Source: a virus
IMG/VR virus record: IMGVR_UViG_3300019764_000005
Location: 1 to 64,000 of that record
DNA: 64,000 nt
Strand: one strand, 5' to 3'
Below the pieces are notes generated by a model. It had not been told where the DNA came from. It saw nothing but the letters and a program-made list of their open reading frames with translations, and ran no database searches. The position numbers and the translations under genes were made by a program. Below, one piece after another: positions 5,944 through 44,254 of the stretch; position 1 is the first letter of the stretch, and every line of letters starts with the position of its first letter.

Positions 5944-5974
5944 CAAATCTACTACCAATTCTATTTAGAAACAA
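5944..5974 (-). promoter_or_regulatory. Promoter of the tRNA transcript
   Basis: Minus-strand TAGATTTG (5951-5944) with TTG at 5974-5972 gives the exact 23-base step seen at several promoters in this window. It lies just upstream of the initiator tRNA. The -33 part lies in a 19-base element, TATTTAGAAACAAACTAAA, repeated at about 6187-6205 before the next small gene. Confidence 0.65.
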
Positions 5975-9923: not shown

Positions 9924-10196
9924 TTATAGATCCAATTCCTCACCTATTCGTTTTATCAAGTCGAAATGCTTGTTAGATTTGTCAATTAGAGGATATAGTG
10001 AAAGTAAATTTCTTGCCTCACGTAAAAGATTGTCTGAATTCAAAAGGACCTTGTAAATATCTCTTTTGACCTCATCAGGCATCTTTCTCTTATTATTTAG
10101 CCATTGAGATAATTGATGCACAGACTTGCCAATTTTTTCTGCTACAAAGGTGTTTTTTAAACCCTTTTCTTTAATTAAATTTTGAATATTTTCCAT
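9924..10196 (-). CDS. XRE-family helix-turn-helix regulator
   Basis: This 90-residue protein has an N-terminal HTH: KNTFVAEKIGKSVHQLSQWLNNKRKMPDE, in two helices separated by a turn, as in phage Cro/CI repressors (established family). The C-terminal 35 residues are helical and could dimerise. It is transcribed away from NinG across a 137-base gap, so it probably controls both directions (inference). Confidence 0.85.
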   Translation of the reverse strand: MENIQNLIKEKGLKNTFVAEKIGKSVHQLSQWLNNKRKMPDEVKRDIYKVLLNSDNLLREARNLLSLYPLIDKSNKHFDLIKRIGEELDL

Positions 10197-10298: not shown

Positions 10299-10329
10299 TT
10301 GACATTGTAGATTATTCTTTTTAGATTTG
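10299..10329 (+). promoter_or_regulatory. Promoter of the NinG operon
   Basis: TTG at 10299-10301 and TAGATTTG at 10322-10329 fit the Bacteroidota consensus with the 23-base step common here. The ATG at 10334 is so close to the expected start of transcription that the mRNA would be nearly leaderless. The site lies in the XRE/NinG divergent gap. Confidence 0.65.
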
Positions 10330-10333
10330 CCAT

Positions 10334-11002
10334 ATGATTAAAAAGAAATTGAAAGTCTGTAGAGGAATTGGGAAAGCTAAAGATTACGGCTGTGGAGATG
10401 ATAAGCTTATTCATAAATATGGCTTATGCACTGGATGTTTTGCTAAATGGCTTTATAATTCAGAAGAAGGACAGCAGGTTCTTAAAAAGAGTGTTTTGCG
10501 AGCGAAAGGGAAAGTTCGCACAGATAATAAGATTAAGCACAATCAAGCCAGGCAAGATATTAAAAAGAAGGCTGAATTTGAAAAAGATCTTCAGACCGAA
10601 GTAAATACTATCGTTAGACTTATTGATGTAGATAAAGGATGTATTAGTTGTGGGCATGGATGGAAAGAAGGTTGGACAAGACAAGCACATGCAGGACATT
10701 ACTATTCTGTAGGATCAGACCCTACTTTACGCTTTAATTTTTTTAATATTTGGAAACAGTGCAGTATTTGTAATAATTTTAAAGGTGGCAACGAAAGAGC
10801 TTATGCTGACGGAATTATAGAGCGTTACGGGAAGATGACTCTTCTGAGGATGAATGGTCTTAAAGCTAAGTATAAAGAAATTCACCTGGCAAAACATGAG
10901 CTTATCGAAAAGATTAAGATTGCCAGGAAGATTAAAAGAGCTATAAAATCTGGTAAAGATTACACCAGAGATGAGTTGAATGACCAATTAGGTATTTATT
11001 AA
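10334..11002 (+). CDS. NinG/Rap-like recombination nuclease
   Basis: A 222-residue protein with two N-terminal cysteine pairs (about residues 9-35) and the NinG core: CISCGHGW, QAHAGHYYSVGSDPTLRFN, then KQCSICNNFKGGN. In lambda, NinG/Rap is a structure-specific endonuclease acting on recombination intermediates (established). The C-terminal third is a basic helical region. It is the first gene of a plus-strand operon, under the divergent XRE control region. Confidence 0.85.
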   Translation: MIKKKLKVCRGIGKAKDYGCGDDKLIHKYGLCTGCFAKWLYNSEEGQQVLKKSVLRAKGKVRTDNKIKHNQARQDIKKKAEFEKDLQTEVNTIVRLIDVDKGCISCGHGWKEGWTRQAHAGHYYSVGSDPTLRFNFFNIWKQCSICNNFKGGNERAYADGIIERYGKMTLLRMNGLKAKYKEIHLAKHELIEKIKIARKIKRAIKSGKDYTRDELNDQLGIY

Positions 11003-11017
11003 TTTAAAATTTGTAAA

Positions 11018-11314
11018 ATGAAAGACAAAATTCAGCCAGCAGGAAGACCTTTAAATGAAGGCGAAATCGAACAATTAAGAATACAAGAGGTGTGCGCAAA
11101 CAAGCAATACCGAAAAGATCTGGATGTTATTCTTCAGGAAATAAAAGCTTGTCCAGGTTCCAGAGAAAGATCCTTAGCTATCACAAAACTTCAGGAGTGT
11201 ATTATGTGGCTTGGTATGGATCTTAAGCGTTTAAACGAACCTAATCCGTATCCTGAGAGTTATAATCCTAAAAGCTCGGTAATTGAGCCTACTTCGGATG
11301 ATTTAAAACTTTAA
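11018..11314 (+). CDS. Acb2/Tad1-like anti-defence protein candidate
   Basis: This 98-residue helical protein has the segment SRERSLAITKLQECIMWLGM followed by DLKRLN, which closely resembles the helical hairpin of the Acb2/Tad1 family (SRE-SLA-TKL-EA--W). Family members sequester cyclic-nucleotide signals of CBASS and Thoeris immunity (established). A conserved PNPYPESYNP tail matches Bacteroidota phage versions from memory. Assignment is by motif recall only. It lies in the NinG operon, in an accessory-like region on the opposite strand to virion genes. The ligand cannot be read from the sequence. Confidence 0.65.
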   Translation: MKDKIQPAGRPLNEGEIEQLRIQEVCANKQYRKDLDVILQEIKACPGSRERSLAITKLQECIMWLGMDLKRLNEPNPYPESYNPKSSVIEPTSDDLKL

Positions 11315-11346
11315 TCTTTTTTTTAACAAACATTTAATTTTATATT

Positions 11347-11628
11347 ATGCAAGATCAACCAAGTTGCCCAACACCAATAACTGAGGCAGAATCTTTAAAA
11401 AATGGATTCTTAGATGTAATTGTAGGAATAAGAGAAGCTAAGGAAAGACTGACTGCTTTCTCTGAAAGATTTTGTGGCGAAGGTCTTCCAGAACTAAAAG
11501 ATAAACCAAGCGATCATGATAAGCAAACACCAAGCGTTATGCATGATCTTAAAAGTATGAAAAATACAATCAATGATAATTTGAGTGCGATTCATGCATT
11601 GATTTGCCGCTTGGAGAATTTCGTTTAG
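11347..11628 (+). CDS. Small helical protein next to Acb2-like gene
   Basis: A 93-residue protein of two helical regions joined by a polar linker (about residues 52-65). No family recognised. It follows the Acb2/Tad1-like gene by 32 bases and is closed by a terminator, so the two are probably co-expressed. A partner or second anti-defence role is possible but unsupported. Confidence 0.55.
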   Translation: MQDQPSCPTPITEAESLKNGFLDVIVGIREAKERLTAFSERFCGEGLPELKDKPSDHDKQTPSVMHDLKSMKNTINDNLSAIHALICRLENFV

Positions 11629-11659: not shown

Positions 11660-11695
11660 CAAAGCCTGATATCTCCAAATATCAGGCTTTTTTTT
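11660..11695. terminator. Bidirectional terminator
   Basis: Stem AAAGCCTGATAT / ATATCAGGCTTT with a short loop and a T run of nine on the plus side. It separates the plus-strand NinG operon from the convergent portal operon. Confidence 0.85.
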
Positions 11696-18022: not shown

Positions 18023-18301
18023 TTATTCGTAGTATCCTTTTACATCTTTAAGATCTAAGAATACAAACTTTTTACCATCTTCAACGATCTCGGTACCAGC
18101 GCTACTAAGATGAAACACCTCGACCCCAGGTTTGATGTTTTTTGTAAGTCCTGGAACATCATTACCGACATGAACGACCAATCCCTTTCGCATTCCACCA
18201 GACTTCCCGTTGGAGTTTGGAATATGAATTCCACCGGATGTCATTTCCGGTTTTTCTATTGGAGTTATAATCACTCCGCGTCCTTCTGCTTTTATTGCCA
18301 T
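18023..18301 (-). CDS. groES: Co-chaperonin GroES
   Basis: A 92-residue 10-kDa chaperonin that caps GroEL. It has the GroES order: an N-terminal strand (GRGVIITPIEKPEMTSGGIH), a mobile-loop-like segment (IPNSNGKSGGMRKGLVVHVG), KPGVEVFHLS in place of VGDxVLF, and a C-terminal VFLDLKDVKGYYE. The mobile loop is close to the usual GGI/V-x-I/L/P pattern. It starts next to groEL (gap of 2 bases), in the reverse of the usual groES-groEL order. Confidence 0.8.
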   Translation of the reverse strand: MAIKAEGRGVIITPIEKPEMTSGGIHIPNSNGKSGGMRKGLVVHVGNDVPGLTKNIKPGVEVFHLSSAGTEIVEDGKKFVFLDLKDVKGYYE

Positions 18302-18303
18302 AA

Positions 18304-19950
18304 TTAATCCAAGCTATCTACGATTATACATTCTGTTGTAAGTAACATTCCTGCTGCAGATGCAGCATTCTCGATTGCAACTCGCGCAACCTTCACAGGA
18401 TCAATAATGCCTGCAGCGTTCAAATCTTCAACCTCTTCAGTTAAAGCGTTCCATCCGAAAGAATGATTTTTTTTCTTAACTTCAGATATAATATCAGATA
18501 CAATCACTCTTTTATTAAAAAAAGATTCAAAGAATCCGATTTTATCACAAGACACGCCAGCATTCATTGCAATCTGTGTAATTGGTTTTTCAATCGCTTT
18601 TCTGACGATATTAATACCCATTTGCTCATCTTTAGTGCCTCCGATGATATTATCAAGTAAGTGTTGAACATGAATGAATGCCGATCCACCACCTGTTATA
18701 ATTCCTTCTTCAATAGCTGATCTAGTCGCCCATAAAGCATCATCAATACGATCAAGCTTTTCCTCAGCTTCAGTTTCCGACATGGCACCCACTGTAATTA
18801 CTGCAGCTTTACCAAGGAGACAACCGATTCTTTTTTCTATCTTATTACGATCATTCTTAGATAGCTCTGGATTAAGTTGAGAACGTAACTCCTTAGTTCT
18901 ATCCCCTATGATATCCTCGTCACCATAGCCAGAAATGATTGTGGTTTTGTCTTTTTTCACAATCACCTTTTCAGCAGAACCAAGCATTTCAACCGTGACA
19001 TCCTCGATGTTTATAGCTTTGCTGTCTGAAATTACAATCCCTCCAACAAGGGTTGCTATGTCTTCAAGTACATCTTTTTTAATTTCTCCTGAAAATGGAG
19101 CTTTAATGGCGGCACAGCGAATAGACTTTTTGAAATTATTGAAAGTCATGGTCGCTAAAGCCTCATCAACTATATCGTCGGCTATGATAATTAATGGTCG
19201 TGCTAATTGTGCAGCAATTGTCATAGCAGGTGTTATCTGACTTAATTGAGATAGAGTGATGTCACAAATCAAAATGATAGGATTCTCAAGAACAGACTGC
19301 ATTTTACTCATGTCAGTAAGAAAATACTTGTTGCATGCTCCTGATTGAATGTCAAATCCATCTACAATTTCAACCTTAGTTTCTTCGCCAATCACCCCTT
19401 TTGCGTTAACTATCCCCTCTCTTCCGACAGCTTTAATAGCTTCTGAGATAACATCACCAATTTCAGGATCATTATTTGCAGATACATTGGCAATAAAGTC
19501 AAGGTCTGATAAATCTTCTTTTATTGGTCGAGCTATTTCTTTTAACCCAGATACGATAACCCTTGTGGCTTCATCGATACCTCTTTTCAGTAAAATCGGA
19601 TTAATCCCTGAGTCTACAACCTTAAAACCTAAATTCAGAATAGCTGCTGCTAAAATAGTTGCGGTAGATGTTCCGTCACCCGCAGCATTTCTAGTCTTTG
19701 AAGCTGCTTCCTTTATAGCCTGTGCGCCTAAATCCTTATAAAGGTTTTTGAAGAAAATGCTCTCAGCTACACTTACACCATCCTTAGTGATTTGATGTTG
19801 TCTGAGATGGTTGTGAATGGCTACGTTTCTACCCTTTGCTCCAAGTGTCACAGCTACAGCCTGGGCAACTTCATTTGCACCGTCAAGAATCAAAGCTTTA
19901 GCATTTTTGCCAAATTTCAACTCCTTGTTCATTTTATTGTCCTCGTTCAT
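18304..19950 (-). CDS. groEL: Phage-encoded chaperonin GroEL
   Basis: This 548-residue protein is a full-length 60-kDa chaperonin that folds proteins inside a double ring. Key motifs are intact: KELKFGKNA, LGAKGRNVAI, ITKDGVSVAES, AGDGTSTATIL (ATP and magnesium site, about residue 90), DDALWATRSAIEEG with the catalytic Asp, and GGGSAF. A second ATG at 19932 (MNKELKFG) matches the usual GroEL start better. The C-terminus lacks the GGM repeat of bacterial GroEL. Phage GroELs are rare; it probably folds capsid or fibre proteins (inference). Confidence 0.95.
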   Translation of the reverse strand: MNEDNKMNKELKFGKNAKALILDGANEVAQAVAVTLGAKGRNVAIHNHLRQHQITKDGVSVAESIFFKNLYKDLGAQAIKEAASKTRNAAGDGTSTATILAAAILNLGFKVVDSGINPILLKRGIDEATRVIVSGLKEIARPIKEDLSDLDFIANVSANNDPEIGDVISEAIKAVGREGIVNAKGVIGEETKVEIVDGFDIQSGACNKYFLTDMSKMQSVLENPIILICDITLSQLSQITPAMTIAAQLARPLIIIADDIVDEALATMTFNNFKKSIRCAAIKAPFSGEIKKDVLEDIATLVGGIVISDSKAINIEDVTVEMLGSAEKVIVKKDKTTIISGYGDEDIIGDRTKELRSQLNPELSKNDRNKIEKRIGCLLGKAAVITVGAMSETEAEEKLDRIDDALWATRSAIEEGIITGGGSAFIHVQHLLDNIIGGTKDEQMGINIVRKAIEKPITQIAMNAGVSCDKIGFFESFFNKRVIVSDIISEVKKKNHSFGWNALTEEVEDLNAAGIIDPVKVARVAIENAASAAGMLLTTECIIVDSLD

Positions 19951-39337: not shown

Positions 39338-39368
39338 CAAAATTAAGACACAATTACATTAGAAGCAA
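39338..39368 (-). promoter_or_regulatory. Leftward early promoter
   Basis: Minus-strand TAATTTTG (39345-39338) with TTG at 39368-39366, in the longer context TTTATATTGCTTCTAA. The 23-base step is exact. Confidence 0.6.
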
Positions 39369-39424: not shown

Positions 39425-40006
39425 TTAAAGTTTCTTAATTGCAAGCATTACTAATTCATCTGAATTTTTCGGTTCTTCTGATTTTAATATTTCATCAACA
39501 ATTGGCACGATATCTTCAAGTAGAAATCCGAGCTGCACCAATGCATTCATGGCTACAGCTTTCATTTCACCAGTATGATTAATATTAGGTACGTCTGATA
39601 AATCATCTTCTCCAACCTTCTTTGCAAGCTCCACAACAATACGCTTGGCAGTCTTGGCACCTATGCCTTTGATTTTTACGAAAGATTTATCGTCACCAGA
39701 AGAGATGGCAATCTTGACCTCATTCGTAGTCATTCCGGAGAGTATCGTCATGCCAGTATTGGCACCTATACCTGATACCGATATTAACAACCTGAAAACA
39801 CTCCTGCTTTCCTTACCGTAGAATCCGTATAATTTATGAGAGTCTTCCTTTATCACTTCATGTAGATAAAGCTTGGCAGCTTTAAAAGTAGATAGAAACT
39901 CGGAGGTGTCATTTGAGATGTTTACCAGGTATCCTAATCCACCTGTTTCTACTATCACTGAATCTGGCTGTAGGTCCACCAGTTCGCCTTTGATGTATTC
40001 TAACAT
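39425..40006 (-). CDS. ruvA: Holliday junction DNA helicase subunit RuvA
   Basis: A 193-residue protein with the RuvA plan: an N-terminal OB domain (MLEYIKGELVDLQPDSVIVE and on), a central double helix-hairpin-helix (LISVSGIGANTGMTIL, then KIKGIGAKTAKRIVVELAKK), and a small C-terminal helical domain (NALVQLGF). RuvA binds four-way junctions and recruits RuvB (established). No RuvB or RuvC is in the window, so it may work with host proteins. It lies in the leftward early operon before a coiled-coil protein. Confidence 0.9.
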   Translation of the reverse strand: MLEYIKGELVDLQPDSVIVETGGLGYLVNISNDTSEFLSTFKAAKLYLHEVIKEDSHKLYGFYGKESRSVFRLLISVSGIGANTGMTILSGMTTNEVKIAISSGDDKSFVKIKGIGAKTAKRIVVELAKKVGEDDLSDVPNINHTGEMKAVAMNALVQLGFLLEDIVPIVDEILKSEEPKNSDELVMLAIKKL

Positions 40007-40381: not shown

Positions 40382-40412
40382 CAAATTTACTACACCATTA
40401 ACTTAGAATCAA
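40382..40412 (-). promoter_or_regulatory. Promoter of the ruvA operon
   Basis: Minus-strand TAAATTTG (40389-40382) with TTG at 40412-40410, in the context TTTATATTGATTCTAA, matching the plus-strand motif at 20.03 kb. Confidence 0.7.
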
Positions 40413-41616: not shown

Positions 41617-41647
41617 CAAATATACGGCACCAATAGATTAGATCCAA
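41617..41647 (-). promoter_or_regulatory. Main leftward early promoter
   Basis: Minus-strand TATATTTG (41624-41617) and TTG (41647-41645) in context TTTATATTGGATC, with the exact 23-base step. It faces the gene-free region and heads the leftward operon. Confidence 0.7.
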
Positions 41648-44151: not shown

Positions 44152-44226
44152 GGCTTAGTAGCTCAGTTGGTAGAGCGCAAAGATTAAATTGTCTTTGGGT
44201 CGCGGGTTCGAGTCCCGCTTAAGCCA
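44152..44226 (+). tRNA. tRNA-like gene with enlarged anticodon arm
   Basis: The acceptor (GGCTTAG/TTAAGCC), D arm, T arm (GCGGG-TTCGAGT-CCCGC) and discriminator A are normal. The anticodon arm has 20 bases between positions 26 and 44 instead of 17: CAAAGA-TTAAATTG-TCTTTG, a six-pair stem with an eight-base loop. Identity is uncertain; TAA (Leu) is one reading. Eight-base loops occur in frameshift-suppressor tRNAs (established). Confidence 0.75.
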
Positions 44227-44254
44227 CAAAATTATTCACTAAAATTTATATAAA

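What the first reader, a model, noticed from the sequence alone, without database searches (positions are those of the whole stretch)
11018..11628. Acb2/Tad1-like anti-defence candidate with an unknown partner
The 98-residue protein carries the SRExSLAxTKLxE helical-hairpin signature of proteins that sequester cyclic-nucleotide immune signals. It sits behind NinG and an XRE-controlled promoter, with a 93-residue helical gene directly after it. The pair could be a small anti-CBASS/anti-Thoeris module.
Basis: partly seen in the sequence, partly recalled or inferred. Interest (0 to 1): 0.7.

Follow-up and report, generated by a model that had tools for sequence, protein, structure and literature searches.

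The report
Phage immune-signal sponge relative, orphan neighbour
A virus of (probably) flavobacteria carries a small protein related to the Acb2/Tad1 "sponges" with which phages soak up bacterial alarm molecules; its helical neighbour gene is an unrelated orphan, and what the protein binds is not yet known.

Summary
The 98-residue protein (11018-11314, +) is real and belongs to Pfam PF24729, Acb2/Tad1 hairpin (36 bits, cut-off 27, E 7.9e-9). It belongs to a phage-borne lineage, mostly of Bacteroidota phages, crAss-like ones included. The lineage keeps the SRExS...TKLQE hairpin and adds a conserved tail (NPYPxS...IxPTADxLKL) that T4 Acb2 lacks. It has neither the N-terminal aromatic of T4 Acb2 (Y8) nor the beta-sheet of Tad1, so it is a relative, not an Acb2 or Tad1 proper. 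Associations support a signal-sponge role: of 50 relatives' records searched, the two with a Tad2-like gene have it directly after the hairpin gene, and five of the six with an RyR domain (family of the anti-Thoeris enzyme RyDEP) have it fused to the hairpin with published active-site residues kept. No ligand was tested. The 93-residue neighbour is probably a gene and probably helical, but an orphan: no relative in any search, and other hairpin genes have other neighbours. The two-gene 'module' is not supported. NinG, sponge and orphan look like one transcription unit.

The parts
9924..10196 (-). HTH (XRE/Cro-like) regulator, divergent from the unit
   Evidence: HTH_19 E 8.4e-6, 26.1 bits against cut-off 30.2; HTH_3 22.8 against 23
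10299..10329 (+). Bacteroidota-type promoter match TTG-N20-TAnnTTTG, 4 bases before the NinG start codon
   Evidence: 6 matches in the window, shuffles mean 1.67, 0 of 100 shuffles reach 6; the consensus is recalled
10334..11002 (+). NinG/Rap recombination endonuclease
   Evidence: PF05766 E 9.9e-32; phrog_171 E 3.9e-36
11018..11314 (+). 98-aa Acb2/Tad1-hairpin protein, candidate immune-signal sponge
   Evidence: PF24729 36 bits over cut-off 27; phmmer to Tad1 8kbb E 2.3e-4; AlphaFold2 two-helix hairpin 14-43 and 49-73, pLDDT 80.6
11159..11197 (+). Hairpin motif SRERSLAITKLQE, residues 48-60; T56 aligns with T68 of T4 Acb2
   Evidence: BLASTP of 52-64 with T4 64-76
11243..11311 (+). Lineage-specific tail NPYPESYNPKSSVIEPTSDDLKL, residues 76-98
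   Evidence: both tail motifs in 92 of 102 hairpin ORF rows, three of these rows being copies of the window gene
11347..11628 (+). 93-aa orphan, predicted helix-loop-helix; not a conserved partner
   Evidence: no family, structure or sequence relative; single-sequence AlphaFold2 helices 13-43 and 63-92, pLDDT 72.7; coding bias
11661..11690 (+). Terminator-like hairpin with T-tract that closes NinG-sponge-orphan
   Evidence: 12 pairs, loop of 6

Best explanation
The 98-residue protein is a phage anti-defence sponge of the Acb2/Tad1-hairpin superfamily. By analogy with Acb2 and Tad1 it should form a hexamer of helical hairpins that binds and sequesters a nucleotide immune signal of the host (a CBASS cyclic oligonucleotide or a TIR-made ADP-ribose derivative), so that the effector that would kill the cell is not switched on. 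It is made with NinG from one promoter. Shown here: family membership, predicted hairpin fold, phage-borne distribution, conserved motif and tail, and linkage of relatives to Tad2 and RyR anti-defence domains. Inferred: hexamer, ligand, timing and effect. The conserved tail, with Y78 in it, may replace the missing aromatics of Acb2 in the pocket. The 93-aa neighbour is a separate orphan gene of unknown role.
For: PF24729 over cut-off; T4 Acb2 as positive control hits the same model. Closest solved relatives are Tad1 chains. T56 aligns with T4 T68; T68M is reported to lower T4 Acb2 binding (PMC12657230). The lineage is phage-borne: 147 viral stretches encode a relative, against 1 of 395 genomes of the phylum of Dysgonomonas (Bacteroidota), the one being the seed genome. 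Tad2-like genes in 2 of 50 records, both directly after the hairpin gene. RyR domain in 6 of 50, five in one ORF with the hairpin, plus L093 and Sulfitobacter phage phiCB2047-B. The fused RyR keeps the RyDEP ligand/active-site residues at matching spacing: L002 H59, W62, H84, D101, invariant in 5 of 5, against H75, W78, H100, D117 (PMC13232231).
Against: No ligand or phenotype was tested. The dinucleotide-stacking Tyr of T4 Acb2 is absent. Sequence similarity to T4 Acb2 beyond the hairpin is nil (BLASTP aligns 13 residues). Foldseek finds no PDB match at E <= 0.001, which a plain two-helix hairpin would give anyway. The associations come from relatives: the window's own record has no Tad2-like and no RyR match. 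The RyR fusions may stem from one event.
Confidence: 0.72

Rival explanations
1. The hairpin is only an oligomerisation module in a recombination/replication accessory protein that works with NinG.
For: NinG is the gene directly upstream in the window, and NinG lies four genes before the hairpin gene in Gundel_1.
Against: Apart from the window and its copies, NinG is found in only one of the loci held (L009), and Gundel_1 belongs to a genus, Tenacibaculum phages, that this phage's terminase also matches. Elsewhere the gene before the hairpin gene is a dUTPase or a ribonucleotide reductase or something else. RyR and Tad2 links point to immune signals.
Confidence: 0.12
2. Two-gene sponge module: the 93-aa protein is an obligate partner (co-sponge, chaperone or regulator) of the hairpin protein.
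For: Gap of 32 bases, shared unit up to the terminator, both predicted helical.
Against: No relative of the 93-aa protein in 48 other records that carry a hairpin gene, in viral contigs, phages, 3 genomes or 395 genomes. Other hairpin genes have varied next genes.
Confidence: 0.08
3. A decayed or re-purposed sponge that no longer binds immune signals, having lost the Acb2 aromatic and the Tad1 sheet.
For: No aromatic residue in positions 1-30, no strand in the model.
Against: Strong conservation of hairpin and tail over 46 diverse sequences: 16 invariant columns, among them K29, R32, D36, Q40, R49, E50, W64, K70, Y78.
Confidence: 0.08

Closest known systems
Tad1 (Thoeris anti-defence 1; PDB 8kbb, 7uav)
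   Same: Hairpin motif nearly identical to 8kbb (CRENAMAITKLQECLMWLG against SRERSLAITKLQECIMWLG); E 2.3e-4. Tad1 also has a C-terminal tail that lines its pocket (review PMC12043709, passages).
   Different: No N-terminal beta-sheet domain: only 13 residues precede helix 1. The tail has its own conserved sequence.
Acb2 (phage T4 Vs.4, PDB 7uq2; Acb2 homolog 43, PDB 9ptq)
   Same: Small all-helical hairpin, same Pfam model, T56 in place of T68, shared weak hit to phrog_1454.
   Different: No counterpart of Y8; F82 not clearly matched; extra 23-residue conserved tail.
RyDEP / phage RyR-domain proteins (PF02026; PMC13232231)
   Same: RyR domain is fused in front of the hairpin in six relatives and in Sulfitobacter phage phiCB2047-B.
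   Different: No RyR domain in the window protein or its record. The RyDEP paper's main text has no occurrence of Acb2, Tad1 or hairpin.
Tad2 (PF11195)
   Same: Next gene after two relatives (L009, L049).
   Different: Different family; no Tad2-like gene in the window's record.

Membership tests
PF24729 Acb2/Tad1 hairpin domain | Profile score over the curated cut-off | tested here: met
   36 bits against 27, residues 11-65
PF24729 Acb2/Tad1 hairpin domain | Two long helices joined at the SRE turn | tested here: met
   AlphaFold2 helices 14-43 and 49-73, mean pLDDT 96-97 for residues 31-60
Acb2 | N-terminal aromatic needed for cyclic dinucleotide binding (T4 Y8) | tested here: not met
   No Tyr, Phe or Trp in residues 1-30; role of Y8 from PMC12657218
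Acb2 | C-terminal aromatic after the hairpin (T4 F82) | tested here: inconclusive
   Ungapped counting from the MW pair puts K70 there; the gapped alignment puts T4 F82 in the tail; Y78 is invariant in 46 rows
Acb2 | Ligand-site Thr (T4 T68) | tested here: met
   T56; T68M effect from a figure legend of PMC12657230
Acb2 | Hexamer that binds cyclic di-/trinucleotides | not testable with these tools
   Monomer model only; no binding assay
Tad1 | N-terminal antiparallel beta-sheet before the hairpin | tested here: not met
   No strand in the model; sheet described in PMC12043709
Tad1 | Sequesters gcADPR (Thoeris signal) | not testable with these tools
   Needs a binding assay
Two-gene anti-defence module with the 93-aa protein | Partner recurs beside hairpin genes | tested here: not met
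   0 of 48 other records that carry a hairpin gene

The most novel reading that the evidence does not exclude
The tailed hairpin lineage is a third branch beside Acb2 and Tad1 whose conserved tail builds a pocket for an ADP-ribose-type (TIR-made) signal. When fused to an RyR domain it makes a two-headed anti-defence protein in which the hairpin hexamer captures one signal class and the RyR domain captures or cleaves 2'/3'cADPR.
Probability: 0.25. Interest if true: 0.65.

Novelty: new variant of a known kind. Interest (0 to 1): 0.42.

Why it matters
It extends the Acb2/Tad1 sponge family into phages of Bacteroidota, crAss-like gut phages included, as an architecture without the N-terminal aromatic of Acb2 or the sheet of Tad1 and with a conserved tail of its own. 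The fusions to RyR domains and the Tad2 neighbours make the ligand question directly testable. The lineage may be covered by a survey that I could not read (Hadary 2025), so the claim of novelty is moderate.

Tried and rejected
Fold comparison: Foldseek against PDB gave 265 matches at E <= 10 and none at E <= 0.001. T4 Vs.4/Acb2 (7uq2) came 12th at E 2.0. VIA-align gave Z 7.6 with rmsd 9.0 over 75 residues for 7uq2, among many unrelated helical proteins of equal Z; Tad1 was not listed. A two-helix hairpin is too common a shape for this to decide anything.

Partner hunt: Pfam, PHROGs, NCBIfam, PDB, viral contigs, phages, 49 records, 3 genomes and 395 genomes gave nothing but the window itself. 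The empty genome searches have no positive control.

NinG linkage as a clue: only one other locus (Gundel_1). Dropped.

A Tad1-like beta-domain in relatives with a longer N-terminus (L059): no match of that part to Tad1. Dropped. NCBIfam gave no hit even for T4 Acb2, so it says nothing.

Statistics: adjacency of Tad2 (2 of 2 within 300 bases, binomial 4e-4) and RyR (5 of 6, 1.9e-8; 0.04 if the fusions are one event) was computed after the cases had been seen. I chose the 50 records by hand out of about 100 loci, keeping all then-known cases in, so the frequencies are not unbiased. The tree places the fusions in two spots (L040 apart) but does not rule out one origin; few of its forks are resolved.

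Literature: Hadary 2025 (bioRxiv; title seen in a reference list), Li 2024 (PMC12159963) and Chen 2026 (PMC13243611) are not held. That the cyclic-trinucleotide site of Acb2/Tad1 uses the SRE turn is recalled, from no call.

Full report
Setting. The window is the first 64,000 bases of a 72,154-base IMG/VR virus record. Its terminase finds 87 phage records: 68 of Flavobacterium, 15 of Cellulophaga, 2 of Tenacibaculum, 1 of Maribacter and 1 'Caudoviricetes', all under 60% identity. A flavobacterial host is therefore likely, though not shown.

ORF 11018-11314 encodes 98 residues with SRERSLAITKLQE, and ORF 11347-11628 encodes 93 residues. Codon bias supports both as genes. NinG is directly upstream and a divergent HTH gene lies behind it. 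A Bacteroidota-type promoter match sits at 10299-10329. There are six such matches in the window against 1.67 expected, and none of 100 shuffles reached six; the consensus itself is recalled. A terminator-like hairpin follows the 93-aa gene. NinG, the 98-aa gene and the 93-aa gene thus look like one transcription unit.

Family. The 98-aa protein scores 36 bits against PF24729, over the cut-off of 27. T4 Acb2 scores 71.4 and a Paenibacillus phage homolog 80.7 against the same model. The only PDB relative by single-sequence search is Tad1 8kbb (E 2.3e-4). A profile of 11 relatives adds further Tad1 chains (E 0.013) and 9ptq, 'Acb2 homolog 43' (E 0.3). AlphaFold2 on an alignment of 46 sequences gives a two-helix hairpin, pLDDT 80.6. 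Fold searches could not discriminate.

Lineage. A scan of viral contigs found 147 stretches that encode a relative, of which 80 were kept. Isolates and assembled phages include Tenacibaculum phage Gundel_1, Bacteroides phage BK735P4 and the crAss-like phages ctcc615 and cr111_1. A scan of genome contigs found 13 loci: 10 titled as Bacteroidota or a group within it, the other three titled Nitrospirae, Acholeplasmatales and Fimbriimonas. In 395 genomes of the phylum of Dysgonomonas (Bacteroidota) only the seed genome itself matched, so this is a phage gene, not a common chromosomal one. Both tail motifs (PYP and a PTAD-like end) are present in 92 of 102 ORF rows; three of these rows are copies of the window gene, and the ten exceptions are listed. 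T4 Acb2 and Paenibacillus phage Tripp have no such tail.

Ligand-site residues. T56 aligns with T4 T68. A figure legend in PMC12657230 (passages read) says that T68M lowers T4 Acb2 binding. PMC12657218 (passages read) reports that Y8A, a mutation known to disrupt dinucleotide binding, stops Acb2 from activating Panoptes, and that F82 stacks on the ligand. The window protein has no aromatic residue in its first 30 positions. Whether Y78 in the tail replaces F82 cannot be told. The review PMC12043709 (passages read) describes the N-terminal sheet of Tad1 and the part of its C-terminal tail in the pocket; the window protein has no sheet.

Genomic associations of relatives. In Gundel_1 the next gene, 17 bases on, is Tad2-like (PF11195 E 1.5e-26). 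In L049 a Tad2-like gene starts 11 bases after the hairpin gene (E 4e-22). Over 50 whole records (2,248,260 bases) these are the only two Tad2-like genes. Six of the same 50 records have an RyR domain. Five are fused in front of the hairpin, and the sixth (G044) lies elsewhere in its record. A further fusion is L093 (nearly identical to L052), and another is Sulfitobacter phage phiCB2047-B, in which both domains pass Pfam cut-offs. In L002 the RyR domain passes but the hairpin reads 25 bits, just under 27. Six RyR hits from the phage collection were looked at for their second domain: one (phiCB2047-B) has the hairpin, two have Phage_gp49_66 and three have no other domain over its Pfam cut-off. 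The RyR domain family was reported in 2026 as anti-Thoeris glycosidases and sponges (PMC13232231; abstract, sections 4 and 5 and passages read). Its residues H75, W78, H100 and D117 correspond at a constant offset of 16 to H59, W62, H84 and D101 of L002, invariant in the five fusions aligned. These links are the best evidence that the hairpin lineage handles immune signals. They come from relatives, the counts are post hoc, and the fusions may be one or two events. The window's own record has neither family (the RyR search had no ringing control, but the same model rang).

The 93-aa neighbour. No family, structure, phage, viral contig or genome search found a relative. The single-sequence model is two helices with pLDDT 72.7. 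The genes after other hairpin genes are varied. I therefore treat it as an orphan in the same unit, not as a partner.

Verdict. The 98-aa protein is most likely a sponge-type anti-defence protein of a tailed Acb2/Tad1-hairpin lineage (0.72). The ligand is open. I found no paper in the held library that describes RyR-hairpin fusions (searches; only listings and the passages named were read), but the most relevant survey (Hadary 2025) is not held.

Noticed in passing
L002:3611-4231, L017:3091-3756, L021:3566-4246, L040:3644-4252, L052:3566-4228, L093:3566-4228, L104:1486-2052: RyR (PF02026) fused in front of an Acb2/Tad1 hairpin in one protein, with the RyDEP active-site residues kept in the five aligned; seen also in a Sulfitobacter schitovirus.
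   Followed up: partly
L106:658-1530 and L108:877-1545: RyR domain fused behind a Phage_gp49_66 (PF13876) domain in Salmonella phage Maynard and Vibrio phage vB_ValP_FGH; PF13876 may be worth testing for a link to nucleotide signals.
   Followed up: no
window 18023-19950 (-): Phage-encoded chaperonin (Cpn60, PF00118 E 2.5e-61) with a small 92-aa ORF directly next to it that looks GroES-like (by eye, not searched).
   Followed up: no
window 39425-40006 (-): RuvA homolog in the phage (RuvA_N E 4.4e-19), besides NinG: two junction-handling proteins in one genome.
   Followed up: no
window 44152-44227 (+): ARAGORN calls a tRNA-like gene with a four-base anticodon (aaat).
   Followed up: no
window 5944-5974, 39338-39368, 40382-40412, 41617-41647 (all -): Four of the six promoter matches share an extended TTGnnTCTAA element, perhaps a promoter class of this phage.
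   Followed up: no
L020:3815-4234: DUF1508 (PF07411, E 1.2e-7) fused in front of the hairpin, another fusion partner.
   Followed up: no
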